Positions 3,939 through 20,500 of a stretch of 21,858 nt of DNA are shown here, one piece after another. The DNA comes from a virus. The position numbers were made by a program, and so were the translations under genes. The stretch is taken from positions 1 through 21,858 of the IMG/VR virus record IMGVR_UViG_3300007236_000076. The stretch is one strand, 5' to 3'. Under the pieces are notes generated by a model. It saw only the letters and a program-made list of their open reading frames with translations. It made no database searches and was not told where the DNA came from. Every line of letters begins with the position of its first letter. The first letter of the stretch is position 1.

Positions 3939-3940
3939 TT

Positions 3941-4240
3941 TCAACCACCTCGACAAATAGGGCAGGGGTCGCCTTCAATTTGGCCCTTCCCTTGACAAGC
4001 GGGGCAGTTAGCATCACCGCTTGGTTGTTCAGTCATAAACCCTTGAAGAAATTGCATCATCTCGCGATTTTCGTCGGGCGTAAGAGGTGCGCGCAAGTTG
4101 GCAGGTTTTTGACAATGGTGATTATTCAAACCGTTTTCGCCGTAAAAATAGCGTTCGCATTTAGGACATTGCACTTTGCGACCGCCGCGCCCCTCATCTC
4201 CGAGAGGCATGTTTTTCAAAAAAAGCCACCAATCGCTCAA
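3941..4240 (-). CDS. Double zinc-finger protein (C2HC finger plus DnaJ-type CxxCxGxG)
   Basis: A 99-residue protein directly after the large terminase. Residues 25-43 form CPKCERYFYGENGLNNHHC, a classic zinc-finger frame with an aromatic core. The C-terminus has CPACQGKGQ followed by CPICRGG, the CxxCxGxG repeat known from DnaJ-type zinc centres. Two separate zinc sites are thus likely. The probable start is a TTG at 4240 that shares TTGA with the stop of the terminase; the same arrangement is seen at 9064-9067. If the TTG is not used, the first ATG is at 4210, but it has no ribosome-binding site. Function unknown; DNA or protein binding next to the packaging motor is an inference. Confidence 0.75.
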   Translation of the reverse strand: MSDWWLFLKNMPLGDEGRGGRKVQCPKCERYFYGENGLNNHHCQKPANLRAPLTPDENREMMQFLQGFMTEQPSGDANCPACQGKGQIEGDPCPICRGG

Positions 4241-5637
4241 TCTAACAACCCCGCCATTATGTCATCCAAGTCCACAATACGCTCACGGAACTCCGTTGTC
4301 GCCCAATGAGCCAACGCGAGAGCAATAGCAAAGTCGTCATGCCGACCGATGCTGTCAAGCCGTCCTTTCTTGCTCATACCGAACATCAGCAATTCACGTT
4401 CAAGTTCAGACGTGAGTGTACGAGAACGGTCGTCACCGTAAGGCAATCGTATTTGTTCATTCTCAAAACGCAACACCAACCCCATGAGTAGTGACTCGCG
4501 ACGTTGCCGTGTGGATATGAATGTCTTAATTGGTAAGTCTGTATCCGCGCGTAGTTCTGTTGCGAAGACGCGTTGAAAGTTGTTGGCTTCAAGTTCGATG
4601 ACGTCAGGATTGAATTTTGCATTCAAACGCTGTATCTCCATGATTTGCGTGCGGAAGTCCATGTTCTTACGACGAACCGCATGAACCATCTCAAGTAATT
4701 CAGGGTTGGTTGATGGACGTCGAAGAACGACCATCACGGTATAGTCAGCCGCGCGGTCTGATGAAATCGCGGGGTCCCAACCGATGAAGTATTGGTCGTC
4801 AGGGTCGCCTGTTTCACGTTCGATTAACCGAAGCGACGAATCTTTTGCCGCTTGAAGAACGGTGGATGGGAAGAGACTGCTAACGTCGTCCATTGGTTCA
4901 CATAGATATTCACGCGCAAATGCAATCGCGGGCATATCGTTTCGACGTGCATCAAGTGATTCTAAATCCCATCGTTCAGGCCACAACGCCTCACCTTTGC
5001 TGTTGATGGCAGGGTAAGTTTCGACAAGATACCCTTCGCGACTTTCCAACTCCGTGTAAAGGTCGGTCGGTGTAAACGGTGTTCCGACAATCATCAACTT
5101 GGATGTGTGGTGAAGTGTAGGAACAAGGACTTCGTAAAACCACGAAGCGACGCGAGCGAGTTCTGTGTCGGTTGTTCCCCACAGAATGTCGTCGCATAGA
5201 ATCAAGTCAGGGTGAATACCACGAATAGCACCACCAACCGACTTTGCGCTGATGTTTGAGCCGTTACTGAAACCAAAAAATGTCTTCGACCATGAGTCAG
5301 CCTTCTTCATTTTCGCGAGAAACGGCACACCATCAATCAAATCATTGAGTGTGCGCATGTGGTGAATGGACTGATGAAGACTGTGCGAAATCAAAACGGC
5401 TTTGGTCTTGGGATTGAATGCAGTCTTCCAAAGCATGTAGCCAAGAAACAACGTTGACTTACCGTGGTCACGCGCCGCTTTGACACAATATCGCTTTCGT
5501 GATTCAAGGTTGTTATACCACTGCTCATGATGCCACGACAATTGAAACCCAAGAATCTCTTCAAAGAAGAATTTGAAGTCGCGCTTCGCTACTTCAAAAT
5601 CAATCTCTTCGATGGCTTCAAGGGATAACTGTTGCAC
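4237..5637 (-). CDS. terL: Terminase large subunit (packaging ATPase/nuclease)
   Basis: The large terminase powers DNA packaging into the prohead and cuts concatemers. This 466-residue protein has the expected two domains. The ATPase has a Walker A at residues 54-62 (AARDHGKST) and a Walker B at 145-150 (LILCDD), followed by GTPFTP (185-190), the usual coupling segment. The RNase H-like nuclease domain has D288 in GWDPA, acidic residues E348/E350 in ELEANN, and D434/D435 in RHDDFAIALALAHW. All key residues look intact and the length is normal for the family. The start is a GTG at 5637 with GGTGAT five bases upstream; no in-frame ATG lies near. It follows the gene ending at 5644 and is translationally coupled to the small zinc-finger gene after it. 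Confidence 0.95.
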   Translation of the reverse strand: MQQLSLEAIEEIDFEVAKRDFKFFFEEILGFQLSWHHEQWYNNLESRKRYCVKAARDHGKSTLFLGYMLWKTAFNPKTKAVLISHSLHQSIHHMRTLNDLIDGVPFLAKMKKADSWSKTFFGFSNGSNISAKSVGGAIRGIHPDLILCDDILWGTTDTELARVASWFYEVLVPTLHHTSKLMIVGTPFTPTDLYTELESREGYLVETYPAINSKGEALWPERWDLESLDARRNDMPAIAFAREYLCEPMDDVSSLFPSTVLQAAKDSSLRLIERETGDPDDQYFIGWDPAISSDRAADYTVMVVLRRPSTNPELLEMVHAVRRKNMDFRTQIMEIQRLNAKFNPDVIELEANNFQRVFATELRADTDLPIKTFISTRQRRESLLMGLVLRFENEQIRLPYGDDRSRTLTSELERELLMFGMSKKGRLDSIGRHDDFAIALALAHWATTEFRERIVDLDDIMAGLLD

Positions 5638-5643
5638 GCGCCA

Positions 5644-7269
5644 TCACCGAATGTTCAACCCTTTCAATAGCGCATCCCATGATGCTATGTGTTTATCGCT
5701 TGAGAACAACGCGAGAGGTGCGGCGGCAGGGTCATCATCATCACCACCACTCCCTGCTGAATCAGGGAACATAACCTGCGCTTGTTCACCACTCGTCGCT
5801 TCCTCAACCTTTTGTTTCGCGTCAGGATTGCCTTGTTCTGCTGATTGAACAGTCGCGTCAGCCTGTGCAGGTGACATACCGTGATAAGCGGCAACAGCCT
5901 GTGCCAACTTGGTCCTGTATCCCCTGCTACCTGTCGCGGATGTAATCGCTTCATAACTTTCGGGTTTGTCAAACAAACCAAGTGCTACTTCACGCGCTTT
6001 TTTGCGTGAAGTGCCGCCTGTATATCCTGCTGTATCGAGCATTTGGTCTGCGAATCGTCCGCGCTCATCATCTTCTTGAGACGCATCTCCGTCAAGTGTG
6101 AGGTCATACATTTCTTCATCTTGAGGTTGTTCATTCTCACCTTCGCCAAGTGTGAGGTCATACATTTCTTCATCTTTAGGAGGCTCGGCAGGTGCAGGTG
6201 TTGGATTGATAGCAGGTGGTGGTGGTGAGTCGGTATTGACCGACTCTTTTAGTCCTTCAGACGCGCTATCAATTTCTTGGTTGATTGCTTCAACAGTTCC
6301 TTCATTTGCATCTTGCTCGGCTTGTCGCGCTTCTTGCATTTGTTCAGGCGTCTGTTGCAATCCACGATTTTGTCGCGAAATGTCCAACGCTCTTCGGAAT
6401 CTGTTTGGTCGCGGACCTTCTAACGAACTTTTCTTTTCAGCCAATTGTTGTCGCATCTCTTCTTCTTTTTGAGCCAATGGTGTTTGAGCAATCGCCACCA
6501 ACTGACGGTGTCGCTCACCTGCGTCAGTTCCCGCTTCTCGACGAGCGCGCGCTCGTTGGTCTTCTAATCTATTCAAGTCACCTTGAAGAACGTCGCGTCG
6601 CATACCTGCCGCTTTGTCTTTGCGTGCTTGGTCTTTCGCTTGTCTTCTTCCTTCTCGGTAATTCCCCGCCACTCCCATGAAATCTCGCATACGCTCACTC
6701 GCGCCCGGAAATTTATCAGCCAAGAATCGCCCTGCCTGACCTGCTTTGTCACCGACAAACCGTCCTGCACCTGCGATGCCTCGACCCATACCTTTGACAC
6801 CTTCGACTACACCTCGACCTGTTTGAGCGACAGCGCGACCTGCGGCTTGTCCGTATTGACCTGTTCGTGCTAAATTGCCAACGGTGCGTTGTCCTTGCTC
6901 AAGCGCGGCTTGTGAATCCAAAGCGCGTTGCGCACCGAGCAAACGTCGTGCGTCTCGCGCATTTCTAAAAGCGGTATTTGTATTACCAACAGTTCCCGAA
7001 ATAGCAGGAACAAATCCTTGATTGACGCCGAAAGGTTGCTGTGGTTGCTGTGGTTGCGGAACATTCTTCCGAATGATGTCAGGATGTGAGTTGTCGCGCT
7101 CCGCGACAGCCTTGATGAGTGGCTCCCAAGTGTCGTCGTGTTGATTGAGCATAACGTAATTGACATCCGTGAGGTTGCCTCCTTTCGCGAAGATAAACTC
7201 CATTGTGCCTAAATCGACACCGTGTTCAATCATACTGCTGTTCCATTCAATTTCCCATGTTTCAACCAT
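5644..7269 (-). CDS. Large low-complexity probable virion/assembly protein
   Basis: A 541-residue protein I do not recognise. The first 70 residues look folded. Then comes a PQPQQPQQP linker, then a Gly/Ala/Arg-rich helical region (about 100-200) with a recurring GR..AG pattern (GRAVAQTGRG, GMGRGIAGAGRF) that may be amphipathic. A long charged coiled-coil-like part (about 215-330) follows. An acidic Pro-rich part contains two copies of DEEMYDLTL 18 residues apart. The last about 150 residues are Ala/Gln-rich with a GGDDDD run. The ATG at 7269 has GGAGG eight bases upstream and overlaps the previous gene by eight bases; an earlier in-frame ATG at 7314 lacks this. Position between the Zn-HTH protein and the large terminase suggests a head, scaffold or ejected internal protein; that is inference. 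Confidence 0.75.
   Translation of the reverse strand: MVETWEIEWNSSMIEHGVDLGTMEFIFAKGGNLTDVNYVMLNQHDDTWEPLIKAVAERDNSHPDIIRKNVPQPQQPQQPFGVNQGFVPAISGTVGNTNTAFRNARDARRLLGAQRALDSQAALEQGQRTVGNLARTGQYGQAAGRAVAQTGRGVVEGVKGMGRGIAGAGRFVGDKAGQAGRFLADKFPGASERMRDFMGVAGNYREGRRQAKDQARKDKAAGMRRDVLQGDLNRLEDQRARARREAGTDAGERHRQLVAIAQTPLAQKEEEMRQQLAEKKSSLEGPRPNRFRRALDISRQNRGLQQTPEQMQEARQAEQDANEGTVEAINQEIDSASEGLKESVNTDSPPPPAINPTPAPAEPPKDEEMYDLTLGEGENEQPQDEEMYDLTLDGDASQEDDERGRFADQMLDTAGYTGGTSRKKAREVALGLFDKPESYEAITSATGSRGYRTKLAQAVAAYHGMSPAQADATVQSAEQGNPDAKQKVEEATSGEQAQVMFPDSAGSGGDDDDPAAAPLALFSSDKHIASWDALLKGLNIR
6093..6176. repeat. Two perfect 30-bp direct repeats encoding DEEMYDLTL
   Basis: The 30-base sequence at 6093-6122 recurs exactly at 6147-6176, a 54-base period (18 codons). 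On the coding (minus) strand each copy encodes the nonapeptide DEEMYDLTL, preceded in both cases by an acidic or Pro/Gln context. The identity at the DNA level implies a recent duplication, or selection to keep the peptide in two copies. Confidence 0.9.
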
Positions 7270-9067
7270 TGAGTGCGCCTCCACAAGACCGCTTGATAGC
7301 GCGAACCACGTCATGCGTCGTGTTAAAAGATTTCGCTATCACATTCCAATCTCCGAGCGACATAGCAATCGCGCGGACATCAAGACTCGACATACCTACA
7401 TTTTCGCCCAACTGTTGCATATCATACGAATCCATAGGGTCGTATTTCTGCATCAATGAGCCACCTGCGTCATGCATTTGCACACGCTCCATAATCGTCG
7501 CGATGACACCCATTGGGTCATCGTTCGACTTCATTGAGAAAGATGGACCGAACCCACCAAACCCTCCAAATTCAGGCGGAGCAAATCCGCCGAATGGCAC
7601 TTGGGCTGAACCGCCTTCGTCAGCCAACGGGTCAGCCGCGAGAGGTTTTTGCGTTTCGTTCTCGGACGGCATTGTGGTCAATGGCTCTTGAGGTGGGAGC
7701 AACGGCTCAACAGGTTGTTGTTCCGCGCCTATCGTTCCTCCACTCAAGTGCGACGGGAAGGAGTCGTGCAAATGGTCGTAGTTCGTATTGAATTTACCGC
7801 GCATATCATGATGTTCGTCAGCAAGACCGAGCGAATCCATGTCGATTTGTCTCGCTCTCGACGAAGCATATTCGACGTAATTATCACGCACATTCGGTCT
7901 TGTAAGTGGAGTGTCGCCAAGTTCGACGCCTGTTTCTTCTGCTGTCTTGAGCATAGCCATGATGTCGATTGCCGCATTCTTTTGGCCGCGTTCATCATCG
8001 CCAATAAGACGACCAAATTGTCCGACGTGTTTCGTGTAAAGTTGGTGAATATCGCGATTTTTGTCAATGCCGATTTGTTCTCGTATGTCTTTCATTATGG
8101 TGCGCAAACCTGTTGCACGTCCATCTTTACCTGTTCCTCCGCCATACAACAACTGATTGACGGGAGCGCGAGCCATCTCTCTCGCTGTGTTTTGGTCGTA
8201 TCCCAACTCCATCAATTCATTCATGAAATCAGTCGACATACCGCCCTGCGTTGATGGATTGAAGAATGCATTCGGTAAAACAGACACGATGGACATAGGT
8301 GATATTTCACCATACGCGGCAGTTTGAGAGTGCAATTGTTTGTAATGCGAAGGGAATTTTGTGTTCTTCTTTGACGTTGGGTCAGCCTCATTTGACGTGT
8401 ATCGTCGCGTTACTCCACTTGTAATTTGTTGAGGTTCGATAACGTTCTGTCTTGCACCCAAACGTGTATCTATACCGCGCTTCTTTACTTCATCTTGGAA
8501 CTCTTTGGAAAAATGAAATGCCGCTGACTCAAGATGCACACCAAGCGTTGGGTGCGCTTTGTTGTTCGCGTGGTTGTTGATTAACTTCCCATCTTCTGTT
8601 CTTGTTCTTCGTTGTGCTGTCGGCACACGCTTGTGTTCGTGCGAACCGTAGTGATTGTTCATGTATTCAGGATGGAGACGACCATCTTCTCCGAACGGAA
8701 TTGGGACGGTGTGAAAGTCGTCGTTGTTGTCGCGTTTGATTTTGTTGAATCGCATCGCGGAAGCATTCATGATTTCTTTCGCCATACTCAAAGCGTTGGA
8801 TTCTGTTGTCGGCTTTCGCCTGACGCCGTTTTCATCAATGTATCCTCCCTTCATGATTTCATTGGCTAAAATCATCGCGCTTTTCTCCATAGGGAATTGA
8901 CGCATGTGCGCAGGTATCTCCTTGAAAGGCTTACCTGTTATCGAATTGATGTAAAAATGTGATTCGTTTTCGTGGTCAGAATCTTCAGGTGGGAACGACA
9001 TAGGGTGCATGACCCCATCTTCGTCCATGTAGTAAACGCCTTTTCCTTTGAGGATGATGTCGCTCAA
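7262..9067 (-). CDS. Large unknown protein, probable virion component
   Basis: A 601-residue protein that I cannot assign to a family. The N-terminal two thirds are His-, Asn- and Arg-rich with no membrane segments and read as a globular or extended structural protein. Residues about 460-530 form a linker rich in Pro, Gln and Glu, then GGFAPPEFGGFGGFG. The last about 60 residues form helices resembling a helix-turn-helix (LDVRAIAMSLGDWNVIAKSF, then THDVVRAIKRS). The start is most likely the TTG at 9067, which shares TTGA with the stop of the upstream gene and has GAGAGGTGG ahead of it. An upstream ATG at 9115 would force a 52-base overlap. It ends overlapping the next gene by eight bases. Confidence 0.75.
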   Translation of the reverse strand: MSDIILKGKGVYYMDEDGVMHPMSFPPEDSDHENESHFYINSITGKPFKEIPAHMRQFPMEKSAMILANEIMKGGYIDENGVRRKPTTESNALSMAKEIMNASAMRFNKIKRDNNDDFHTVPIPFGEDGRLHPEYMNNHYGSHEHKRVPTAQRRTRTEDGKLINNHANNKAHPTLGVHLESAAFHFSKEFQDEVKKRGIDTRLGARQNVIEPQQITSGVTRRYTSNEADPTSKKNTKFPSHYKQLHSQTAAYGEISPMSIVSVLPNAFFNPSTQGGMSTDFMNELMELGYDQNTAREMARAPVNQLLYGGGTGKDGRATGLRTIMKDIREQIGIDKNRDIHQLYTKHVGQFGRLIGDDERGQKNAAIDIMAMLKTAEETGVELGDTPLTRPNVRDNYVEYASSRARQIDMDSLGLADEHHDMRGKFNTNYDHLHDSFPSHLSGGTIGAEQQPVEPLLPPQEPLTTMPSENETQKPLAADPLADEGGSAQVPFGGFAPPEFGGFGGFGPSFSMKSNDDPMGVIATIMERVQMHDAGGSLMQKYDPMDSYDMQQLGENVGMSSLDVRAIAMSLGDWNVIAKSFNTTHDVVRAIKRSCGGALNG

Positions 9068-10293
9068 CCTATTCCACCTCTCCTGACATACAAGTCGTAT
9101 GCGTGTGCGCCCCATCGCGTCGCATCGTCATCAGGGTCGGTCTCGGTTGGACCTGTTGGATTTGATGTCTCCCCACCTGACGAATTCGGTGTGGACGTTT
9201 TATCTTCTTTATGCATCATGCGTCGCAACAAACGATTCAATTTGTCCATCAACGTTCGATATTCAATCCTATCGCGAGGTGATATACCTACCTTGACTTT
9301 CTGTGCGCGTCCTTTCATGAATTCTTCGGAAGCGAGAATCGAATCCGCACCACCCGCAAGTGAAGTTGCTTCTGTCATTTCTTGACCCATTGGTGTTGGT
9401 GCTGTGCGCGGTTGCCGAGTTGCTTTGCTGTGCAACTTCTTACGACCGCGACCGCGAGGTGGTTTTGTCAATCGAGACATCGGAGACATCGTTGGGATAG
9501 GCGGTGTAATGTCCTGCGTTGGTTGTGTTTGTCGAATTTGTTGTCGTGCCGCTTCCGCTTCGCGTTGTCGTGGGTCAGGATATGCTTGTTTAGCACGCGA
9601 ACGGCCTGTCGCACCACCGACACGGATAAATCGGGTTGGCTGACGGTATGTGTATCCTGTTCCAAACGAAGCATACGGAGCGCGAGCGGCAGAAAGGGCT
9701 GACATACTCCCCATCTGTCGAACGTTTCCTGCTTTGAGCGGAATACCGCTTCCTTTTCTTCGCCTTCGACGCTTGAGTGATTCGACGGTGACGTTTTTCC
9801 TCGCTTTACGCTTCTTACCTGTTTTCGCTCTCGCTCTCGCTCGTATTGTTGAAATCGTCGTTGTCTTCTGTGGTTTTTCGTCGTCGTATTTTGGCTTGTC
9901 GCGTTTTTTGCGAATCATTTCAAACGCGTCGTCGATGTAATCCGTCGTCGAGAGCATGATGTTCGCACCGAGACCACTCGCGTTCGGATTCGCACCGTCG
10001 ATAGCCTCGCTTTGTCCGACCTGTCCTGTCATTTGACCAAGTTCAGCCTGTTGCTTCATATCGCTGTCTTCTTCATCGTCAGGATTCTTTTGAGGAATCT
10101 TAATTTTCATATGTTGAAGACCTTGCAATTTGCGTGCGCGCTTATCTTGTTCTTCACGCTTCTTTGCATCGTGAAGTGCGCGCTCTTCGGAGTCTTCGCG
10201 ACCAACCGATGAATCTTCTTGCAATTCTTCCGCGCTTTGACGCGGATTGAATCGAAAACCTGCGGTGCTTCCTGTTCCCGCAGTTCCAACCAC
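9064..10293 (-). CDS. Highly basic disordered protein, possible DNA-binding virion protein
   Basis: A 409-residue protein with no family that I recognise. The N-terminus (to about 85) is charged and coiled-coil-like (EERALHDAKKREEQDKRARK). The centre has very basic clusters, RARARAKTGKKRKARKN and LKRRRRRKGSG, followed by Arg/Gln/Pro-rich disordered sequence. The C-terminus holds a helical stretch (RDRIEYRTLMDKLNRLLRRMM) and an acidic, Thr/Pro-rich tail. The charge suggests contact with DNA inside the head or during packaging, an inference only. The start is a GTG at 10293 that shares one base with the upstream TAG and has GGTGAC about six bases ahead. Confidence 0.75.
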   Translation of the reverse strand: MVGTAGTGSTAGFRFNPRQSAEELQEDSSVGREDSEERALHDAKKREEQDKRARKLQGLQHMKIKIPQKNPDDEEDSDMKQQAELGQMTGQVGQSEAIDGANPNASGLGANIMLSTTDYIDDAFEMIRKKRDKPKYDDEKPQKTTTISTIRARARAKTGKKRKARKNVTVESLKRRRRRKGSGIPLKAGNVRQMGSMSALSAARAPYASFGTGYTYRQPTRFIRVGGATGRSRAKQAYPDPRQREAEAARQQIRQTQPTQDITPPIPTMSPMSRLTKPPRGRGRKKLHSKATRQPRTAPTPMGQEMTEATSLAGGADSILASEEFMKGRAQKVKVGISPRDRIEYRTLMDKLNRLLRRMMHKEDKTSTPNSSGGETSNPTGPTETDPDDDATRWGAHAYDLYVRRGGIG

Positions 10294-10961
10294 TATTCGT
10301 CACCGCCCATCAATTTGTTACGAAGGCGCGCCCATACTTCAGGGCTTTCTTTCGCCAATTCAACTTTGAGGATGTTGATGGTTTGAGCGTTCATGGTTTC
10401 GTTCGTGCTTCCTGCCGCACGTTCTTGGACGCGCACGATGTCTTTCACCGTCTCACGCACTTCTTTGTGTAACGAAACAATGTTACGAACGTATTGAGGG
10501 TCGTTGCGGTCAGCATCGTCAAGAAAGTGACCTAATTCACCGTTGATTCGTGCTAAATTGTTACGCAAAGACTCCATCTCCTGCCCTGCTTCAACGATGA
10601 TGAGGTCAGCCGCACCTTTTTGCACAACAGGCTTGAGGTGGTGTTTAAGATGATGATATACGTTTGATTCAGGAATTTGGAGGTCGTCAGCGATTTGTTG
10701 GGTTGTCATTGATAAGTTGAAATACGCTTGCTCAAGGTTTTCGCGCTTTGGAGAAGTGCAAAAACCGCATTGACTGTTGCTCGCCATGTGATACTCGCCC
10801 ATATGGTTACGAAAATGACGGTCAGCCGTTCCTTCACGCCATCCCATATCACTATCCATATCTTTCGCGGTCATCATTCCGCTCTTCATCATCTCTTCCA
10901 AAGAGTCGCGACCCTCGTCCTGACAGAATTTGCAAGAAGCACGCGATATACGCTCCGCCAT
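10293..10961 (-). CDS. Tandem Zn-HTH DNA-binding protein, candidate small terminase subunit
   Basis: A 222-residue protein with two copies of the same module. Module one has C10-x2-C13 and H49-x3-H53; module two has C65-x2-C68 and H104-x3-H108. Every metal ligand is displaced by exactly 55 residues, so this is an internal duplication. Each module contains a helix-turn-helix-like stretch (MTTQQIADDLQIPESNVYHHL in module two). After residue 120 comes a coiled coil and a C-terminal helix with ESPEVWARLRNKL, similar in layout to small terminase C-termini that contact the large subunit. Small terminases bind the packaging site and often have N-terminal HTH and central coiled coils, and the gene opens the operon leading to the large terminase. 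A viral transcription regulator is the main alternative. Start ATG 10961 lacks a clear ribosome site; an in-frame TTG is at 10973. Confidence 0.7.
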   Translation of the reverse strand: MAERISRASCKFCQDEGRDSLEEMMKSGMMTAKDMDSDMGWREGTADRHFRNHMGEYHMASNSQCGFCTSPKRENLEQAYFNLSMTTQQIADDLQIPESNVYHHLKHHLKPVVQKGAADLIIVEAGQEMESLRNNLARINGELGHFLDDADRNDPQYVRNIVSLHKEVRETVKDIVRVQERAAGSTNETMNAQTINILKVELAKESPEVWARLRNKLMGGDE

Positions 10962-10986
10962 AGCAAAGACCAAGTAGCCGTATCAA

Positions 10987-11307
10987 ATGAGTGTTTCTAT
11001 GCGAGAGAGGCTTCGTCGTTCACCTAAAATAGCAGGTGTTCCGCTTTCAAAGAATACAGCAAAGAGTCTTTCTCGCGCCGCTATGGATATTATCAAAAAC
11101 AACAAGGCTGACCTCACAGAACGAGAGCGTCGTTACAATATATGCCAACAATGCCCTGAACGGCGACACGACCGATGCGGATTGTGTGGTTGTTTTATCA
11201 AAACAAAGACGATACTGCTCAACAGCGAATGCCCTATTGGTAAATGGTCAACCTTGTTGTCCGAGTCGTCGGTAAATCATTCCCGTCGCGCTGAACGAGA
11301 CGAATAG
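10987..11307 (+). CDS. Small Cys-rich protein (DUF6171-like), only plus-strand gene
   Basis: A 106-residue protein. The first 45 residues are basic and helical. The core is RYNICQQCPERRHDRCGLCGCFI followed by a Lys-containing strand and ECPIGKW, with cysteines at 53, 56, 64, 67, 69 and 82. This CxxC...CxxCGCF..K...CPxGKW layout is widespread in short phage proteins (DUF6171-type) and is probably a metal site; the function is unknown. The recognisable domain ends at W87, base 11247. The last 19 residues (11248-11304) and the stop codon lie opposite the 3' end of the convergent gene. Start ATG at 10987, or in-frame ATG at 10999; neither has a strong ribosome site, so a leaderless mRNA is possible. 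A TATA-like GATATA at 10944-10949 lies upstream. Confidence 0.8.
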   Translation: MSVSMRERLRRSPKIAGVPLSKNTAKSLSRAAMDIIKNNKADLTERERRYNICQQCPERRHDRCGLCGCFIKTKTILLNSECPIGKWSTLLSESSVNHSRRAERDE

Positions 11308-11481
11308 TGCGCCGATAACCCAACTTAAGTCGGTTGAAGTCATTTGTGGTCCTGAAAAGACCAAGATAAGAAAGCAACCAAGCGTCAATGTGATAAGTTG
11401 AACCATAATCATGTCAACAATAACTGATTTGCGCAAATTTGTCATATCGCTGATGGTCGTGTATAGCGAAGAGATGTCCAT
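11248..11481 (-). CDS. Small two-helix membrane protein
   Basis: A 77-residue protein with two clear hydrophobic segments, about residues 19-43 (VIVDMIMVQLITLTLGCFLI) and 52-71 (DLSWVIGALFVSFSATGMIY), ending in a basic RRLGQQG. It has no signal-peptide cleavage site that I can see. Start ATG 11481 has GGAGG eight bases upstream and lies one base after the stop of the preceding gene, so it is the last gene of the GTPase cassette. Its frame stays open far upstream, but that extension only reads the neighbour in another frame. Holin-like or membrane-anchor roles are conceivable; nothing in the sequence decides. Its 3' end overlaps the plus-strand gene by 60 bases. Confidence 0.75.
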   Translation of the reverse strand: MDISSLYTTISDMTNLRKSVIVDMIMVQLITLTLGCFLILVFSGPQMTSTDLSWVIGALFVSFSATGMIYRRLGQQG

Positions 11482-11482
11482 A

Positions 11483-12064
11483 TCATCGACCTCCTGCCAT
11501 TCCGCGCATGAACGAACCGATGCCACCACCAACGTTCTGTAACATGCCGGGGTCCGCGAGAGCGTTATCCAACATACCTTGTAACGAACTTTGGTTTGCG
11601 ATTTGCACCATTTGTTGGAATTGCATGTTTGTTTGTTGAACATTGTTGGATGCTTGATTGAGTATTTGCGTTTGCGCCATCGTGACGCTATCAGCAGTCG
11701 GTAATCCCTGCACACCGCTAAAATCGAACGTATATCCGTTGTCCTTTTCGACCAATTTCGCGTTTGATAGCATTGTGTGGACAGAAACAGCAACAAGACT
11801 GCTCAAAAGCGAGATAAGCATGTTCATATTTGCGCCGTTGTTGTCCGATAACCACTTGTCGATGAGAGGATTGCTTGTTATCATCGCGGACAAAATATCC
11901 ATTTCTGACGGTGGTGGAGGTGGCGCATAGGGGTTGTATCCCCCATTTTGCGTTCCATTCGTGATTTGATACGGAACTTGTTGCTGTCCGCTCGGTAATC
12001 CGAGATTCAACGCGCCATTTTGTTGTTGCGCGGGTTGGTTATTGTTGCTAAAAGGCCACACCAT
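11483..12064 (-). CDS. Q/P-rich protein with one hydrophobic segment
   Basis: A 193-residue protein I do not recognise. Residues 1-55 are Gln/Asn/Pro-rich and probably disordered, with a PPPPPS run. A hydrophobic stretch around residues 79-98 (NMLISLLSSLVAVSVHTML) could be a membrane helix or a buried helix. The second half is Gln-rich and helical (MAQTQILNQASNNVQQ), ending in a Gly/Met-rich tail (GGGIGSFMRGMAGGR). Start ATG 12064 has GAGGTTG about seven bases upstream. It is flanked by the Cys protein and the small membrane protein, so it may act with them and the GTPase at a membrane; this is inference from context. Confidence 0.75.
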   Translation of the reverse strand: MVWPFSNNNQPAQQQNGALNLGLPSGQQQVPYQITNGTQNGGYNPYAPPPPPSEMDILSAMITSNPLIDKWLSDNNGANMNMLISLLSSLVAVSVHTMLSNAKLVEKDNGYTFDFSGVQGLPTADSVTMAQTQILNQASNNVQQTNMQFQQMVQIANQSSLQGMLDNALADPGMLQNVGGGIGSFMRGMAGGR

Positions 12065-12073
12065 GATACAACC

Positions 12074-12955
12074 TCACGCTACACCATCATTTGATTCTGT
12101 CGGTAAAGGAAGAGGGGCGGTTTGTTGCTGTGCTTGATGTATCGCGAGCGCATCAAACAACAACCGCGCATTGTTCCCTGCTTGAAATTGACGCATATCA
12201 AACACAATCATCACTAAATCATTCATTCCTGTCGCGGTATTGGTTAAATGTGTGACAGGAATGTTATCTTGTTTGAGCATTTGAAAGAATGGCTCATATT
12301 TAGCGAGTATTGGAGGTGTGTTGTCCTTCTTTTTGATGCTACTGATTGGCACAGCAACGGTCGAAACACCCTTTTTCAACTTCGCTTTAAGCGTCCCACC
12401 GCTCGCTTCCTCTTCTTTCTCGTCTTCTTTCTCCCATTTCGTCAACAAATGATACAAATGAAGGTGTTCAGGGCAGTATGTTGCGCGCAATTTACGCCCA
12501 CTTGTGACTTTTTCGCGTGCTACAAAGGCTTCAACCTCGCCTGTTACAGGGTTTTTGAAGTACAAATCCCACAACGTTTGACCTGTTTCTTCGTCTCCAA
12601 CCTGCTCGTAAATGTTCCCTGCATGTCGTAAAAGGTGTTCAACATCGCATCCGTCAACGCAACATCGCATTGTGTTGGTATTGTAACGATATTTACCGCC
12701 CCAAATGCGTTTGAGAGAGAAAATTGACCTTTTTGTGGGTTTCAAGAGGCGATATGCTTGCTTTATGTCCTTTCTTCGCGCTTTTTTGGGGTTTGGGTGC
12801 TGTGAAGGGTAAAAATTGACCTGCGGAACTTCGATATGTTGGCTCGCATTGCTCATCGCGGCCTGTGCGGATGCCTGTTGTTGCATCTGTGCGAGGCTCA
12901 TTTGTGTCTGTGCGGCGAGGCGTAAGAGGTCGTTTTGAGGGGTATTACCAAGCAT
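12074..12955 (-). CDS. Unknown protein with a zinc-like C/C-CPEH site, in GTPase cassette
   Basis: A 293-residue protein without a recognised family. Residues 1-60 are Gln/Ala/Met-rich. Residues 60-95 are basic. A probable metal site uses C98/C99, C103 and C161-x2-H164 (CCVDGC and YCPEHLHLYH), enclosing a compact segment with GNIYEQV and TLWDLYFKNP. A charged linker with an EKEDEKEEE run follows at about 175-184, then a C-terminal domain of alternating strands and helices (PVTHLTNTATGMNDLVMIVFDMRQFQ) and a Q/P-rich tail. The start ATG 12955 lies four bases after the stop of the GTPase gene, with GGTGAT formed over that stop, so the two proteins are made in step and may be partners. Confidence 0.75.
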   Translation of the reverse strand: MLGNTPQNDLLRLAAQTQMSLAQMQQQASAQAAMSNASQHIEVPQVNFYPSQHPNPKKARRKDIKQAYRLLKPTKRSIFSLKRIWGGKYRYNTNTMRCCVDGCDVEHLLRHAGNIYEQVGDEETGQTLWDLYFKNPVTGEVEAFVAREKVTSGRKLRATYCPEHLHLYHLLTKWEKEDEKEEEASGGTLKAKLKKGVSTVAVPISSIKKKDNTPPILAKYEPFFQMLKQDNIPVTHLTNTATGMNDLVMIVFDMRQFQAGNNARLLFDALAIHQAQQQTAPLPLPTESNDGVA

Positions 12956-12959
12956 TTTA

Positions 12960-13682
12960 TCACCAATTTAGCATTTCAATCAACGTTTTTTCCACATTCC
13001 AACCAATTTTCGTCGCCATCATGCTAACGCGACACGGAATACCTGCTTTTTGAAGCCTCCGCATGGCAGGACGGTGCGAATCGAACACTTTATGCTCGCG
13101 TAATCGGTTGGATTGCCACAAAATGTTCGCATTATCATCCCACCACTCGTCCGCTTTGTTCGCGACGAGCCATATTTGCTTCGGAGCGTAGCGTTTTCCG
13201 CGCAATCTTGTCAATAATGAGCGGTATCTCCACCGTTTTTCAATCAACGAGTCGGTGAGATACTCAAAACCACCGATTGCGTCAATAACTTCGGCTCCTT
13301 GTCCTTTCAAGACGCGCGTATCTGTCATAAATATGACAATTTCGACTTGTCGGTCAACCATATCGTCAATCCACAAGTTCCAAAAGCGTTGCTGACCGCC
13401 AATATCAGACGAATGTACCACTCTTTTCTCCCCCTGCCATCGAATTCGCTTTCGCGTGGCTTTTGGTAAGACGTATCCGCCACCGATAAGGCGTTTTGCG
13501 TGCATTGTGCGGTCTTCGATGTCGTCCATTTCACCCGGAGTGCGCATAAATTGGTCGAGCGTGGTTTTTCCAACGCGAGTTGGACCGTAAACACCAATCC
13601 TGCGTGGTTTTACGAAGTTATACAACTCCTTACCGTAAACAATCGCGCCCATAAGTGCGCTTCCTGCTACTGTTCCGACCAA
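12960..13682 (-). CDS. Ras/Arf-like small GTPase with hydrophobic N-terminus
   Basis: A 240-residue P-loop GTPase. G1 is GPTRVGKTT at 33-41, G3 is DIGGQQRF at 93-100 (Arf/SR-beta type DxGGQ), and G4 is NKAD at 175-178; a G5-like SMMATK follows near 220-225. The hydrophobic segment at 1-17 could anchor it in a membrane. The order and spacing fit a TRAFAC-class small GTPase, such as those that switch membrane or polarity processes in cells. These are uncommon in tailed viruses. The start is probably the TTG at 13682 directly after the upstream stop, with GGGTGG ahead; an ATG at 13652 with AGGAAG upstream would remove part of the hydrophobic segment. The neighbours on both sides encode membrane proteins, which suggests a membrane-bound switch; the process is unknown. 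Confidence 0.85.
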   Translation of the reverse strand: MVGTVAGSALMGAIVYGKELYNFVKPRRIGVYGPTRVGKTTLDQFMRTPGEMDDIEDRTMHAKRLIGGGYVLPKATRKRIRWQGEKRVVHSSDIGGQQRFWNLWIDDMVDRQVEIVIFMTDTRVLKGQGAEVIDAIGGFEYLTDSLIEKRWRYRSLLTRLRGKRYAPKQIWLVANKADEWWDDNANILWQSNRLREHKVFDSHRPAMRRLQKAGIPCRVSMMATKIGWNVEKTLIEMLNW

Positions 13683-13919
13683 TCATTCCACCCATCCGCG
13701 TATTTTATTGAAAAACCACTCAACTGTGTTCTCCCAAATGCTTACATCGGTTGCTTGTTCAAACCATGATACACCAAGAGCCGTTGAAAAACCAACGATG
13801 ATGCATAAAACCAACGCTTTACCGCGTTCGTAGTAAGTGTCGAGTGTGTTTTGAGTATGTAAAGCGCGCAACGTTGCTTCCGTAGCATCATCTGATGGGG
13901 TTTTGAACAACCAACCCAT
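13683..13919 (-). CDS. Small single-pass membrane protein
   Basis: A 78-residue protein with one hydrophobic segment at about 33-51 (KALVLCIIVGFSTALGVSW), flanked by a polar N-terminal half and a short amphipathic C-terminus rich in Trp (IWENTVEWFFNKIRGWVE). Start ATG 13919 has AAGGAG eight bases upstream, overlapping the stop of the previous gene. Its stop is followed directly by the start of the GTPase gene, making it the closest candidate membrane partner of that enzyme. Confidence 0.75.
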   Translation of the reverse strand: MGWLFKTPSDDATEATLRALHTQNTLDTYYERGKALVLCIIVGFSTALGVSWFEQATDVSIWENTVEWFFNKIRGWVE

Positions 13920-13924
13920 AACGT

Positions 13925-14446
13925 TCACTCCTTTTTCTTGTCTTTCGCGTATGTCCCGTCAGCGTTTCGCTTACGACCACCGCTCAAATTAAGTGGTTCT
14001 TTCTTTTTTGCTTTGTGTTGAGGCGCGTCAGGCTCATAATCAACATTCATCAAATCGAGATACTGCTGAACTTCGGGGTCTTTCTCCAACTCTTCAAGTT
14101 GTTTCGCGAATGCGACCTCTTGTTTCTTGATTTCAACGTCCATTTGAGCCTTAGCAAACCGCATTTGTTGGTTTTGCATCTGTCGTGTCATGCTTCGTTG
14201 CATGTTTGAAATAACAGCGCGCTGGTCCATACCATCTTGTGCTATCATCTTGTAAATAAAATACGACATGCCCTGTAATGTGAATGCGCCCATCATGTAT
14301 GTTATCGCGTTTGTTTGTGTTGAATCATCTTTCAGCCATAGCCCTGCGTCAAAGACTGCAATCGCGGCTCCAACGAGTATAGCGACGAAAGAAATCAGTC
14401 CGAATACTCTCAATTCATCTTTATTTTGTGGCGTTCGCTCTTGCAT
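13925..14446 (-). CDS. Two-helix membrane protein with cytoplasmic-type coiled coil
   Basis: A 173-residue protein. Two membrane helices are predicted at about 14-37 (FGLISFVAILVGAAIAVFDA) and 48-70 (ITYMMGAFTLQGMSYFIYKM). A long charged coiled coil follows (about 85-130, QMQNQQMRFAKAQMDVEIKK), then a basic, Lys-rich tail. Start ATG 14446 has GGAGG nine bases upstream and is the first clear gene after the AT-rich promoter region. The shape (hairpin in the membrane, coiled coil and basic tail outside it) would suit a scaffold that recruits a soluble partner such as the GTPase or DNA. No family recognised. Confidence 0.8.
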   Translation of the reverse strand: MQERTPQNKDELRVFGLISFVAILVGAAIAVFDAGLWLKDDSTQTNAITYMMGAFTLQGMSYFIYKMIAQDGMDQRAVISNMQRSMTRQMQNQQMRFAKAQMDVEIKKQEVAFAKQLEELEKDPEVQQYLDLMNVDYEPDAPQHKAKKKEPLNLSGGRKRNADGTYAKDKKKE

Positions 14447-14447
14447 A

Positions 14448-14495
14448 TCAAACAACCTCCATACATACCGCGTGACGCGAGCGATACATAAGCAT
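14448..14495 (-). CDS. Possible 15-codon leader ORF
   Basis: An ATG at 14495 follows GAGGTGA (14502-14508 on the plus coordinates) with a six-base gap, one of the best ribosome sites in the window. The frame reads MLMYRSRHAVCMEVV and stops at 14448, one base before the ATG of the membrane-protein gene. The ribosome site of that next gene lies inside this frame. It could be a leader peptide controlling translation of the cassette, or a chance frame in the untranslated leader. Confidence 0.35.
   Translation of the reverse strand: MLMYRSRHAVCMEVV
14469..14479. repeat. Short inverted repeat CGCGT-G-ACGCG
   Basis: Five-base arms around one base, within the leader region of the GTPase cassette and ahead of the ribosome site of its first gene. 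It may be an operator half-site pair or chance, since CGCG words are common throughout the window. Confidence 0.3.
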
Positions 14496-14575
14496 GTTGA
14501 TTCACCTCTTTATTGATATTATCATATTATTATTACAACAATATAGTATATTATCATTATAAGAAAAATATGATA
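14496..14575 (-). promoter_or_regulatory. AT-rich promoter region of the GTPase cassette
   Basis: About 62 of the 70 bases from 14511 to 14580 are A or T, against roughly half in the surrounding genes. The region holds a perfect 6-base palindrome with a central G (aatatagtatatt, 14540-14552) and an outer inverted repeat tatcatatt / aatatgata at 14520-14528 and 14567-14575. Read on the minus strand it offers TATA-like ATAATATACTATATT about 25-30 bases before a plausible transcription start, followed by the GAGGTGA site. It lies at a boundary between the giant gene and the cassette. An origin or a protein-binding site is an alternative. Confidence 0.55.
14556..14571 (-). terminator. Possible T-rich terminator of the giant gene
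   Basis: Directly after the TAA of the giant gene the minus strand reads ATATTTTTCTTATAA, with a T5 run followed by CTT. Archaeal polymerases stop at such U-runs without needing a hairpin. There is no GC-rich stem ahead of it. Confidence 0.4.
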
Positions 14576-17500
14576 TTATTGAGAATCATCTTCTCCCAAT
14601 TGCGGCACGTTCGGTCGAGGGAAAAGTTGGAATTGCGGCAACCCTGCCGTTTCAAGTTGCTGTTGTGGTGTCATTGGGATTCGCGGTGATGGCATTTGAG
14701 ATACCGTCGTTGGTTGCTTTTGCGGTGCGACAGGAGGCGCAAGTGATACAGGGCGTTGTGCTGTTGATTGTATCGGCGTTCCCGCGTGCCTTCGGTGCGC
14801 TATCGAATCGTATATATGTAAATCATCGAAGCGACCGTGTTGCCATGTGGGGTGGAAACCGTTGATGCCTTTTATCACGTTTTCAAATTCTTTCATTTCG
14901 GCTTGATTCAATTTTCCTTCTGATGCCGCTTGCGACACCTCTTCGGCTGACGCGAATCCACCCTTTTCCATCAAGTCCATCATTTTTTGGTCATAAACGA
15001 CATTTGGCGTATATTCGTGTTCAGCCACTTTCCACATCAAGTCGTGCATTTGTTTGTCTTGTTGTCGCGCTTCTTCGGATGCGCTGTAATTGACAGCGAC
15101 GCTTTCTTTGAAGACTTGTTGCGCGTTTGGAATGGAGTGCGGTGTTACGTCGGCAGGTTTAGCGTCGTTCAAAATTTCTTCTTTGAAATCATCACCTTTC
15201 AAACCTGCAACCTTTTTCGACATCGTTAATTTCTTTTCCATATCGTTCTCATCTTGGAATCCTAACATTCGCGCGGCTTCGTTGTAGGCTTGAGTCATGA
15301 GGGGGGTATCGTTTTGTATGAGTGTCAGGAAGTTACCCGGCGACATGCGCGTGTCAGCCGACAATCCAACTCTTTTGTTCGCGGACACAATCTTTTCGTG
15401 CAATCCAACGTGGGACAATCCGTCGTATTCTTCACACAACTGTTTCAAACCTGTCAAAAGCGCGAATTGATGCCACATTGGTTTGACTGCGTTTCGGACT
15501 TCTGCATTGTATTCCGCGTCTAACCCTTTTCGCTTAACAGGGCCGTGAACGTATTCTCCTTCCTTTAAATCGCGTGAGAAGTATAAATTGCGCTTCGATT
15601 GTTTCATTTGATTTTTAATTTCGTCAGTCCATGTAGGTTCGGCTGATGACGTCTCGACATTTTCAAAATCGACTCTTCGGTCAGCATCAAATCCGAATTC
15701 ATCCAACAACGCTGACAAAGCAGGGTGCGACATCTTGGTCAGTTTTTGCTTCACCATCGGTGTGTATTTCACACCTTTTTCTCGCGCATCGTTGGCTTCT
15801 TTGTCATCAGCGCGTCCTGTGGTGACAAGATTCAACATTTTGTTGGCTTCTTCTTCGTCGAAGCCACTCTCGCCCGTATGACGATTCCATGCTTGAGTGA
15901 ATTCAGGTGAGTGTCGGAACAAATGAAGAACGTCTTCGACGTCCATAACGTAAGGCTTACCTGCGTTCTTAGGATGAAAAATTTCTCTTAGCGACTCAAA
16001 CGGTGTTTGAAAACGCCCATGTTCATAGATGAGTGAACTATATTCCGAAGGATTGTCTCCCCTTAATCGACCTTCTTTGTCCACGCTGAATTGTTGTTTT
16101 TCACTTCTTACAAGATGACGTGTCGCGTAATCGTGAAGTCGTTCCATTGCTTCCGACACTTCATGCTCTTCGTCTCCGTGAGACATGGATTTGTCAGGGT
16201 GGTTGAGAACCGTGTTGAGCAATTCAAGAACTTCATCTTTGTCTTGACCATTTTCAATAGCCGTGTTCGCCATGTTACTTGCGCGCACTTCAATCATGTT
16301 TTCGTGATACGCTCTCATCAGCGCGTCACTCTTTACTTCGCTTTCAGGTAATTGGTCGATACCTGCTGAATCTTGCGGTTGTTGTGCGAGCCGCTCAATT
16401 GCGTCTTCCATTGAAGCAGGAGCCATCTGACGAGGCGATGCGTCTTCTTCTCCTTGTTCGGCTCTAAATTGCGCAACAAGGTCTTGGAACGTCTTTTCTC
16501 TTCTTCGCGCTTCGTCTCCGCCACCGTAACGCTTTGCGTTCAATTCTCGGATTGTTCCCATGTTGGTCAAAGGTGCAAACATACCTCTCGCGACGTTGTC
16601 TTTGAACACCTCAAGTGCCATACTTTTTGTCGAAGGGCGTCCTTTGACACCCATAACTCGACCCAACTTTTCTTGAAGTGTGTCGGTTGTAAACGATTTA
16701 CCATGATGAGGATTGTGTCGTTCACCTTCATATGAGTGTTCGACACCATTATCATCGACCATTGAATATCCCTTGAGCCAATCGTCGTCGTCAGGGTGAA
16801 GAATGCCGTGTCCGTGACATTGCGAACAAACACCGTCAGCACACCGTCCTGTGGGCGAATCTTCGTTTTCGTGGTCGCAATCAGGGCAAGTGACGTGATG
16901 ATGTTCGTGTGGCTCTTTTCGCGAACCTTCAAAATTTTCTTTGTTTGGTGGGCGCAAGTGTTTTCTGATGTGTTCTCTCATCGCTTTACTTTGAGGGTGC
17001 GCGTTGCGAAGTAGTGGATTATGGGCGCGTATGTAGGATATTGCATCATTCATAGTGACGGCTCGATTACCACCACACGTTCCGCACGCAGTCGCACCAC
17101 CGCGAGAAAATGGCACGTCGAACGATTCACCGTTTTTAATTCGCTTAAGTTCTTCATCGGTGTAATGACTGTTTTGAATGGCTTTTGCAATCTCGTTTTC
17201 AGTCATCTCTTTTTCTTCTTCTTCTATGGTTTTGTTGCCCGTCAAAATATCCAAGCGCGCTCTTGTCATATCAGCCTCGTTGTATTGAGCATCAAGAATA
17301 GCGTTCATTTGTTTGCGCGAAAGTCCGCGCTTGTTGTATTTACGACTGTGGGCTTGCAACACAGCCATGTCAGAAAGATTTGGTAAGTGCTTGTTGTTGT
17401 CCATGAACGTGAGACCTGTTCCACCACTTGCGCCCATTTGACCCACCATGTATTCGTCAGGTGCATACAAAGTTGATTGGCGCGTATTGCCCTCTCCGTC

Positions 17501-20500
17501 AGCCATGAAGACAGTCGAAAGAGGGAAGCCATCGTCGCCTGTGTAAAGTTGTTCACGCAACTTAAGAAGCATGTTGAGTTGCTTCTTTTCGTCTTTTTCT
17601 TTGAGAATAGGCGCGAGAAGGTTTTCGTATTTTTTCTTCTTTTCGTTGTATGACATGCAATTGACCAATGCACCAAGCGCGTATTCGTTTCGTCGCTTGT
17701 TGTATTCTTCGTCGTTTCTGACGATTTCAGTCTTTGATTCAATGCCGCTTATTCGATTCTTCATTCTCTTGAAGTAATCGGCAGGATTCTTCACACCATC
17801 CCTGAATGCTTCCTTTTCAAAGAACAACGTTTTACCTGCTTGGAGGAACGAGTTCTTAGGAACTTCGGTAAATCGAATTGCACCGCGCCCCGCCTCAACA
17901 TTCTCAATCAACGGTTTGTCGAGAACGAGACGGTAATTTTCACCTTGTTTTCGCGGTGGGCGACTGTCGACGATGCGATAGGTCTGATTACTCAAGTGAC
18001 TCAGCGACCCTACGGTGATTTGAGAGTCGCCAATTTTGATGTTATGAAGACCCATAGCATATCGCGGAATCTCAATCTCTCTTTGCCCCATTTGAGCGTC
18101 CTGCACCATATCGACATGTCCGTCGCGTATAGCGTGCAATCTTTCGTTGAGTTCATCCGCGTGTTGTTGTGCTATCGCCGCCTTTTGTTGCATCGCGATT
18201 GCGTGTCCTTTAGGATTAACTTTTTCCTGCAAATTACCGCTTTCGACGCGCTTACCGAACTCTTTGTTCCACGCATCCATCGCGAGTTGATAACGTTCTT
18301 CGATACCACCCAAGTGTTCTTGAAGCATCTGATACCGACGCAACTTTGCTTCGTTCTTTTTGGCGAGATTGATGTCTTTGCTGTTGTTTACAATGAACTT
18401 CTTGATGTCGCTTCTTCCTTTGAAATCTTTGACTTTGTAATTGTATTTCTTTTTACCCTCTTTGTATTGGTATTTGCCGTCTTCGACGTCGTTCATAATC
18501 TCCAACGCTTCAACAAGACCACCCATTTGCGCGTTGAACAAATTGTCCAATCGCAACTGTTCACGTTCTTCGTCGCCCATGAAATTTGAACCCGCAATAT
18601 GTCCAATCGCGACACGTTGCGCGGCAGAACTTCTCGCTCCACCCATCGGTTGAATTTTTTCATCTTTGAATTTGATGCCCGGAAATTCAACGTCCAAATC
18701 TTCAATTTTTTCGTTGTATTTCAGCGCGGCTTTGCGTATTTGATTCTTGATTTCTCGACGAACACCGTCGCGACCACCCTGATAGTATTTCGCTTTACGT
18801 TCCAATTTGCTTTTGAATGTGCTAAATTCAGTTCCTTCACCCAACACATGATGTGCAATCTTAGCCAACGACGTTTTGCTTTCATCGTCAGAAAACAACG
18901 GAATGTATTCGTCTTCGTTCGTTAGTGTATTGAAGATGAAATCGAGTTGCGGAACCATGACACGCTTGTGTTTTATCGACGATGTGCGTGCGCCGTCGCG
19001 AGCCATCCTCGCCTCTTCAGGCGTCGACGATGAAAAATGCTTAGGGTGACACGCAACACATTGCTCTTCATCGTCAATGATTTTTTCTTTGCGCTTATCA
19101 GGTAAGCCTTCCAATTCTTCTCCTTCTTTTGGTTTCGCGTTGTGATGGTCGATGTGTCGCTTTGTTTGCGCTATTCTTTCTTCGTAGCGCGCTGTATTCT
19201 CAGCGTGTGCATCGTTCATTCGCTTGATAGCATACATTGTTCGCAACGCCGCACCTTTCGTTATGTCGCCGCCCAACTTACCAAACATGCTCGCGAATGC
19301 TTGGTCGAATCCTTCTTTTGTAAATCCTGAATTTGCATAGCGCGCTCCCATATCAGCAATGTCGATGGGGTCAATGCCGAATTGTTCAGCGATGTTGCGC
19401 AACTCTTCTGCGTCTCTCGCCGCTTTGTTGAGGAATTGTTGCGTGACCCCTGCTTCAAAACATGTGTTGTATCGCTCAATGTTCTTTTCAGATTGCTTGT
19501 TTAATGCTGATTCAGGGTCGTCAGCGTTTACTATTTGATTCATATTGTAAATGTCTTCGGTGTTGAGATTCAAGTCCATAATTTCTTTTAACGACAGACC
19601 GCTTTTCCTCAACTTCCCTCTCACTTGAACAACGCGACGATTCGCTCCAACCAAATCATCCATGAACTTCGATGCTTCTTTGATGATTTGAATTTCGTCG
19701 AGTTTATGATACGGGTGGCCTTCAGGGAAGTCATCTCCGTGAGGAATTTCGCTGAAATACGTCGGACGATAGTCTCCTGTGACGTCGTTCAACACTTGGT
19801 CGCGAAGGTAATTGTATTCATCTCGACCACCTTCAAACATGTCGTTTTCCAACATGAAATCTAAATCGAGAAGACGGCTATCTTGCGCGACTGTTGCTTG
19901 TCCTCCACCACGTCTCGTTGATGCAGTATAACGCCCCAACTTGGTCTGCTTTACACCACCTTTCGTTCCTTTTACTTCACGTTGCATTTCTTCAACAGAA
20001 GGAAGATTGGCTGTTTCACCGCGCGCACTTCTATCTCCACCACGTTCAGTTCGCTCCTGCAAACCAACGTCTTTGATGTCGGCTGACACTCCCACTTCAG
20101 GCATTTTCGCTTTGCTATCCACTTCATCTCCCAACTGATACAGAATGCCTTCATCTAAAGCAGTAGCAAGAGCAGGGTGCGCTTCCATTTCATTATCGAA
20201 TTGAGGCGGGTCGCGTGCAATTGCGCGTCGATTCTTTTCGCTGTTCGGTGCGTCTCCGCGTAAGAAAAATTCCGTCATACCATCAGGTGCGTTTGGTCGC
20301 GATTCCAACGTCACACCCATCTTACGCGCCTGTTCGTAAAACGAAGGCGTAACGAAGTCGGGAGCCTTGATTGACGTTGCCGCACGACCAAAGCGTCCAC
20401 CGCGTCCCGCAGTCCCGACAGCACGATTTTGTAGGAATACGCGCATGTGTTTGTTCAAATCTTCTTGAACCAACTGCACCGCTTCTTTGACGTCAGATAG

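What the first reader, a model, noticed from the sequence alone, without database searches (positions are those of the whole stretch)
11248..14446. Six-gene cassette built around an Arf/Ras-like GTPase with membrane partners
A small GTPase with intact G1, G3 (DIGGQQ) and G4 (NKAD) motifs is flanked by tiny membrane proteins (13683-13919, 13925-14446, 11248-11481), a Cys/His metal-site protein (12074-12955) and a Q/P-rich protein with a hydrophobic helix (11483-12064). Stops and starts touch or lie within about ten bases, so the proteins are likely made together. GTPase switches of this type act on membranes, polarity or trafficking in cells and are not part of standard tailed-virus modules. 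The cassette could remodel the host membrane, guide egress or placement of the virus, or counter defence. No known system that I can name has this composition.
Basis: partly seen in the sequence, partly recalled or inferred. Interest (0 to 1): 0.75.

Follow-up and report, generated by a model that had tools for sequence, protein, structure and literature searches.

The report
Conserved GTPase operon in archaeal viruses
A large group of ocean viruses that probably infect archaea carries, always in the same place among its particle-building genes, a six-gene set around an Arf-like molecular switch and several small membrane proteins, which may let the virus reshape or use its host's membrane, a step that is poorly understood for tailed viruses of archaea.

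Summary
Six genes (14446-11248, minus strand, gaps of 0-9 nt) encode a small GTPase, a Cys/His protein, and four small proteins with predicted membrane helices. The GTPase predicts as a G domain (best solved matches: Arf/Arl proteins, VIA Z 13.5) and all G motifs are conserved in 152 distinct sequences. The gene order is the same in all 195 related loci (three are cut by a contig end). The set is found 30/30 times when sampled through the terminase and 47/49 through the capsid protein; the two misses are contigs too short to reach it. The GTPase is among the most conserved proteins of the virus (60% between two distant genomes; capsid 73%, portal 64%, terminase 53%). The virus is a ~110-kb magrovirus-like archaeal tailed virus: capsid and portal resemble Druskaviridae, with PolB, RFC and thermosome. 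The set is absent from the Druskavirus HCTV-5. The GTPase is not ArvA, the GTPase that drives vesicle budding in Haloferax, but it may work similarly. I infer a late, membrane-bound GTPase switch for assembly or egress; this is untested. The 'counter-defence' and 'accessory cassette' readings are disfavoured. No earlier report was found in the papers held.

The parts
13925..14446 (-). gO, 173 aa (176 from an upstream TTG): one strong and one weaker hydrophobic helix, long charged helix, basic tail
   Evidence: ORF; hydrophobicity; homologs at the same place in 192/195 loci
13683..13919 (-). gN, 78 aa single-span membrane protein (conserved FKTPxDDxTExTLRAxH start, Trp-rich tail)
   Evidence: 193/195 loci
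12960..13682 (-). Arf/Ras-like small GTPase, 240 aa, with N-terminal helix 3-24 and a basic/aromatic insertion (about residues 148-166) before G4
   Evidence: structure; fold searches; motifs; 195/195 loci
12074..12955 (-). gM, 293 aa soluble protein, confident model without a solved match, putative zinc site C98/C103/C161/H164
11483..12064 (-). gL, 193 aa Q/P-rich protein with a moderately hydrophobic helix (82-100)
   Evidence: a TM-like helix passes the threshold in 96 of 195 homologs
11248..11481 (-). gK, 77 aa two-span membrane protein (conserved SVIVDMIMVQ motif in span 1)
   Evidence: 195/195 loci
14456..14575 (-). AT-rich non-coding stretch upstream of gO, likely promoter of the cassette (archaeal TATA type, inferred)
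   Evidence: sequence and alignment of relatives
10293..10973 (-). gJ, 226 aa Cys/HTH protein, probable small terminase subunit by position; always follows the cassette but lies beyond a 274-bp gap
4237..5637 (-). Large terminase subunit (genomic landmark, about 7.3 kb downstream)

Best explanation
The six genes are one late operon and a core part of the morphogenesis block of a magrovirus-like lineage of marine archaeal tailed viruses. Its Arf-like GTPase, with gM as likely soluble partner or effector, works as a GTP-dependent switch on a platform of small membrane proteins (gO, gN, gK, probably gL) and drives a membrane step late in infection, most likely deformation, vesiculation or opening of the host membrane for virus release. 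Shown here: gene reality, predicted fold, motifs, invariance, co-inheritance, position. Inferred: co-expression, membrane location, GTP hydrolysis, physical complex, late timing, egress role. The confidence given is for the egress/membrane-remodelling mechanism; the claim 'conserved core operon with an Arf/Ras-like GTPase' stands at about 0.95.
For: G-domain fold, closest solved structures Arf/Arl and Asgard ArfR. Profile match to Asgard Ras 96% and Arf 89%, against 0.1-1% for terminase and IF2 controls, and 98.9% to Asgard Arf-like GTPases with the same DxGGQxxFWxLW motif. Invariant order in 195 loci; 30/30 by terminase; 47/49 by capsid protein. GTPase identity tracks TerL identity (r 0.92) and is higher than TerL at long range. 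Same strand as capsid, portal, protease and TerL, opposite to PolB and thermosome. gO, gN and gK carry predicted membrane spans. Precedent that a small GTPase drives membrane budding in Euryarchaeota: ArvA of Haloferax (PMC10927574).
Against: No partner has a known homolog, so nothing links the set to egress directly. ArvA's partners ArvB and ArvC have no counterpart here. The GTPase's own N-terminal helix is weak as a membrane anchor. The related Druskavirus HCTV-5 lacks the set, so tailed archaeal viruses can do without it. No expression, localisation or biochemical data.
Confidence: 0.4

Rival explanations
1. The set anchors head assembly or DNA packaging at the host membrane, or its products ride in the virion and act at genome entry; the GTPase is an assembly-timing or docking switch rather than a membrane-remodelling motor.
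For: It lies inside the head/packaging block immediately before the probable small terminase, 7.3-8.2 kb before TerL, and evolves as slowly as capsid-module proteins.
Against: Other tailed viruses assemble heads without such a set, including the related HCTV-5. Neighbourhood alone does not show participation.
Confidence: 0.27
2. The GTPase mimics or overrides a host small GTPase (polarity, division, vesicle production) to take over the cell, independent of virion assembly.
For: Archaea use small GTPases for vesicle formation (PMC10927574). The viral G domain shares its P-loop/switch I look with ArvA (YGxxxxGKTTL...IPxERT) and its DxGGQxxFWxLW motif with Asgard Arf-like proteins.
Against: No close cellular copy: a scan of 84,980 species found only three contigs, all carrying the viral cassette. 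Five dedicated partners always travel with it.
Confidence: 0.17
3. The set is an anti-defence module.
For: Compact operon of small unknown proteins, a common look of such modules (inference).
Against: No PADLOC match. Strict conservation, fixed place and low dN/dS are unlike the patchy, fast-changing pattern expected of anti-defence genes.
Confidence: 0.06
4. The GTPase fold has been repurposed as a non-switching NTPase or scaffold (for example a capsid or chaperone factor), and the membrane helices are incidental.
For: The catalytic Gln position is Gln in 98, Glu in 45 and Asp in 8 of 152 sequences; long insertions in the interswitch and before G4.
Against: Nucleotide-binding motifs and the switch-I Thr are invariant. 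Glu at this place is compatible with hydrolysis in Ras Q61E (own knowledge).
Confidence: 0.1

Closest known systems
Arf/Arl family and Asgard ArfR GTPases
   Same: Fold (8jc5 Arl8b Z 13.5, 8oum GerdArfR1 Z 12.5) and DxGGQ switch II
   Different: No Pfam Arf (or other) hit; no Gly2 myristoylation site visible; weak N-terminal helix; insertions between switch I and beta-2 and before G4
Asgard archaeal Arf-like GTPases of about 290 aa with DxGGQxxFWxLW (L544, L545, L547, L548)
   Same: Nearest cellular relatives found; shared W-rich switch II; they group with the viral clade (98/89 support)
   Different: Extra N-terminal domain of about 100 aa; not part of this operon. They were picked with the viral profile and branches are long, so the grouping is tentative
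ArvA-ArvB-ArvC, archaeal vesiculating GTPase operon (PMC10927574)
   Same: Small GTPase with N-terminal helix in an operon with a metal-site partner, in Euryarchaeota; similar P-loop/switch I
   Different: G3 is DxPG in ArvA, DxGG here; separate clades; no ArvB or ArvC homolog here; four extra membrane-type proteins
Signal recognition particle receptor beta (SRb)
   Same: Arf-like GTPase with an N-terminal helix and membrane partner (5ck3 Z 11.6)
   Different: Eukaryotic; not tested beyond fold
Rab/Ras GTPases of giant viruses
   Same: Virus-encoded small GTPases (best structural matches among viral proteins)
   Different: Giant viruses of eukaryotes; in this tailed-virus lineage the gene is fixed in the head module with dedicated partners
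Magrovirales / Druskaviridae
   Same: Capsid and portal related to Druskaviridae (36% and 31%); PolB, RFC-like AAA, thermosome, opposite-strand modules and about 110 kb as in Magrovirales profiles (PMC12999244, PMC10768690)
   Different: HCTV-5 lacks the cassette; classified magrovirus genomes were not available for comparison

Membership tests
Ras/Arf superfamily small GTPase | P-loop, switch-I Thr, DxxG and NKxD motifs | tested here: met
   152 distinct sequences
Ras/Arf superfamily small GTPase | G-domain fold | tested here: met
   AlphaFold2 pLDDT 75, pTM 0.75; Foldseek E 9e-8; VIA Z 13.5
Ras/Arf superfamily small GTPase | GTP binding and hydrolysis | not testable with these tools
   needs purified protein; catalytic Gln position is Q/E/D
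Arf family | Matches the Arf sequence profile (PF00025) | tested here: not met
   no Pfam family at E <= 0.1
Arf family | N-terminal amphipathic, myristoylated helix | tested here: inconclusive
   helix predicted, weakly amphipathic; modification not testable
ArvA family (archaeal vesiculating GTPase) | ArvA-type G domain with DxPG switch II, clade membership | tested here: not met
   DxGG in 144/152 and DxAG in 8 of the viral set; separate clades; hhalign 71% over P-loop and switch I only
ArvA family (archaeal vesiculating GTPase) | ArvB (DUF2073) and ArvC (DUF2072) in the operon | tested here: not met
   no Pfam hit; hhalign of every cassette protein against ArvB/ArvC at 1.2% or less
Magrovirales | Capsid/portal kinship with Druskaviridae, PolB-based replisome, chaperonin, 90-110 kb, modules on opposite strands | tested here: met
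Magrovirales | Phylogenetic placement among classified magroviruses | not testable with these tools
   OR863078, ON649702 and PP497040 not held
Magrovirales | Poseidoniales host | not tested
   archaeal host inferred from replication and chaperonin genes only
Known defence or counter-defence systems | Match to a PADLOC model | tested here: not met

The most novel reading that the evidence does not exclude
A tailed virus of archaea runs its own Arf-like, GTP-switched membrane machine: a virus-encoded analogue of vesicle-budding GTPase systems, built from partners with no known relatives and fixed in the head module, used to release virions. It would be the first small-GTPase-driven assembly or egress apparatus in a tailed virus that I know of.
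Probability: 0.3. Interest if true: 0.92.

Novelty: new variant of a known kind. Interest (0 to 1): 0.74.

Why it matters
How tailed viruses of archaea leave their hosts is poorly understood, and those of Poseidoniales, among the commonest ocean archaea, are uncultured. A fixed operon of a membrane-type GTPase and membrane proteins in such a lineage gives a concrete candidate that can be expressed in Haloferax and tested for vesiculation or lysis. It would also extend Arf-like membrane switches, usually tied to eukaryotes, Asgard archaea and recently haloarchaeal vesicle formation, to a core gene of tailed viruses. Its sequence-unique GTPase could serve as a lineage marker.

Tried and rejected
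Accessory or host-derived single gene: rejected, fixed order and place in 195 loci and almost no cellular copies. Anti-defence: no PADLOC match, conservation pattern wrong. ArvABC member: sequence and partner tests failed. Magrovirus reference genomes by accession: not held. Pfam and NCBIfam on the cassette: only chance-level hits. PHROGs: only weak sub-threshold hits. gM against solved structures: no match with Foldseek E <= 0.001, best VIA Z 3.4, so its fold is open, not shown to be new. Cassette in HCTV-5 and vir335: none found, although those empty answers had no positive control. Sigma-70-type promoter scan is not informative for archaea. No Rfam hit. An apparent missing GTPase in the G001-G003 comparison was my ORF picker choosing a wrong frame. 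Three reported 'TGA inside' cases: one real (G034); in G051 the in-frame stop lies before the start, and the G052 half-gene shows the same. Papers: no mention of a GTPase in the magrovirus literature held; Philosof 2017 and Prabhu 2025 were not held and Zhou 2023 was not looked up, so prior mention there is not excluded.

Full report
WHAT IS THERE. The window is a 21,858-base virus record from IMG/VR. The cassette lies on the minus strand: gO, gN, GTPase, gM, gL, gK, from 14446 down to 11248, with 0-9 nt between genes. It is bounded upstream by about 120 bp of very AT-rich non-coding DNA after a 2314-codon gene and downstream by 274 bp before gJ. That 274-bp stretch holds a small Cys-rich gene on the opposite strand (10987-11307), a DUF6171 protein, conserved in 143 of 195 loci and in 119 of them at this very place. 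So the cassette looks like its own transcription unit.

THE GTPASE. No Pfam family matches it at E <= 0.1, but AlphaFold2 with 43 relatives gives a G domain with an extra N-terminal helix (mean pLDDT 75, pTM 0.75). Foldseek finds hundreds of small GTPases (best E 9e-8), and structural re-ranking puts Arl8b, Arl, Arf and Asgard ArfR first (Z 12-13.5). Profile-profile comparison gives 96% with Asgard Ras-like and 89% with Asgard Arf-like proteins, and 0.1-1% with terminase and IF2 controls. Searching 227 Asgard genomes with the profile picked out Arf-like proteins of about 290 aa with the same DxGGQxxFWxLW switch II; they match at 98.9% and group with the viral clade in a tree (98/89). These were chosen by the viral profile and branches are long, so this affinity is tentative. 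Motifs are invariant in 152 sequences, the catalytic-Gln position being Q 98, E 45, D 8, H 1.

THE PARTNERS. gK (two spans), gN (one span) and gO (one strong, one weaker span plus a long charged helix) are predicted membrane proteins; gL is Q/P-rich with a borderline helix; gM is soluble with a conserved C98/C103/C161/H164 site and a confident model without a solved match. None has a convincing match in Pfam, PHROGs, NCBIfam or PADLOC. All are under purifying selection. In 88 loci a gap of 150-299 nt lies between GTPase and gM; those inspected hold a small MazE/AbrB-like ORF.

CONSERVATION. All 195 loci examined (151 distinct GTPase sequences, 100% down to about 55% identity) keep the order gO-gN-GTPase-gM-gL-gK-gJ; three lack gO or gN at contig ends. 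Sampling without using the GTPase gives the same: 30/30 terminase loci with at least 9 kb upstream, and 47/49 records sampled through the capsid protein. The two misses have about 19 kb and 8 kb upstream of the capsid gene, where the GTPase sits 21-23 kb away. GTPase and TerL identities correlate at r 0.92. Between two distant genomes (G001, G003) identities are capsid 73%, portal 64%, GTPase 60%, TerL 53%, protease 49%, gM 45%, PolB 42%. This is core-gene behaviour.

THE VIRUS. Large relatives reach 118 kb, and one 110,196-bp contig has the GTPase gene split across its two ends, as expected of a nearly complete circularly permuted genome. Capsid and portal match Druskaviridae (HVTV-1, HCTV-5). 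The opposite strand carries PolB, an RFC-like AAA protein, an ERCC4-domain protein, a Cas4-like protein and a thermosome. This fits the published profiles of Magrovirales, the viruses of Poseidoniales (PMC12999244, PMC10768690). Classified magrovirus genomes were not available, so membership is likely, not proved, and the host is inferred. HCTV-5 has no cassette in the corresponding place, so it was gained in, or lost outside, the marine lineage.

HOW IT MAY WORK. In Haloferax the small GTPase ArvA, with ArvB and the Zn-ribbon protein ArvC, drives vesicle budding: deletion cut vesicle yield about threefold and abolished RNA-carrying vesicles, and overexpression raised yield 3.5-fold (PMC10927574). 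The viral GTPase is not ArvA: its switch II is DxGG not DxPG, the clades are separate, and ArvB/ArvC are absent; only the P-loop/switch I region is alike. As an analogy it shows that a small GTPase can reshape a euryarchaeal membrane. With position in the late block and several membrane partners, the best-supported reading is a late membrane switch for egress or membrane-bound assembly. Every functional step is inferred.

LIMITS. One structure per protein, no co-folding, no expression data. Collection scans return the best 80 loci, so very distant relatives may be missed. The 195 loci include some records fetched twice in different scans; the count of distinct GTPase sequences is 151. Two key magrovirus papers were not held and a third was not looked up.

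Noticed in passing
window 10987-11307, + strand: Small Cys-rich gene (DUF6171, E 1e-6; phrog_13558) lies on the opposite strand in the gK-gJ gap and overlaps the end of gK; conserved in 143/195 loci, 119 at the same spot.
   Followed up: partly
L056, L260, L270, L300, L311 and others, between GTPase and gM: About half of the lineage (88 of 195 loci) has a 150-299 nt gap here; inspected cases hold a MazE/AbrB-like ORF of about 60 aa.
   Followed up: partly
window 2668-3956 (gB, gC, gD, gE): Small basic/Cys genes (DUF6321, DUF5872) are 61-93% identical in viruses whose GTPase is only about 55-60% identical, and sit at another place there: they look like recently mobile cargo.
   Followed up: partly
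window 14576-21520; G001 5784-14897, 30522-37706, 51060-66359: Giant proteins (2314, 3038, 2395 and 5100 aa) in the morphogenesis block; those scanned (2314 and 2395 aa) have no family match, and the one before the cassette diverges much faster than the cassette.
   Followed up: no
L215 10001-10714: One GTPase copy has an in-frame TGA at an invariant Trp codon; a related record of the same group (L213) is intact.
   Followed up: partly
L163, 8011 bases: A cassette-bearing contig is binned in an Asgard MAG that also has 40 Arf-profile matches; mis-binning or an Asgard host cannot be told apart here.
   Followed up: partly
L544, L545, L547, L548: Asgard Arf-like GTPases of about 290 aa with an N-terminal extra domain share the DxGGQxxFWxLW switch II of the viral family.
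   Followed up: partly
window 1145-2599 (gA): Protein with an HNH endonuclease-like stretch (phrog_5046, residues 315-418) kept between TerL and portal in G001 and G003.
   Followed up: no
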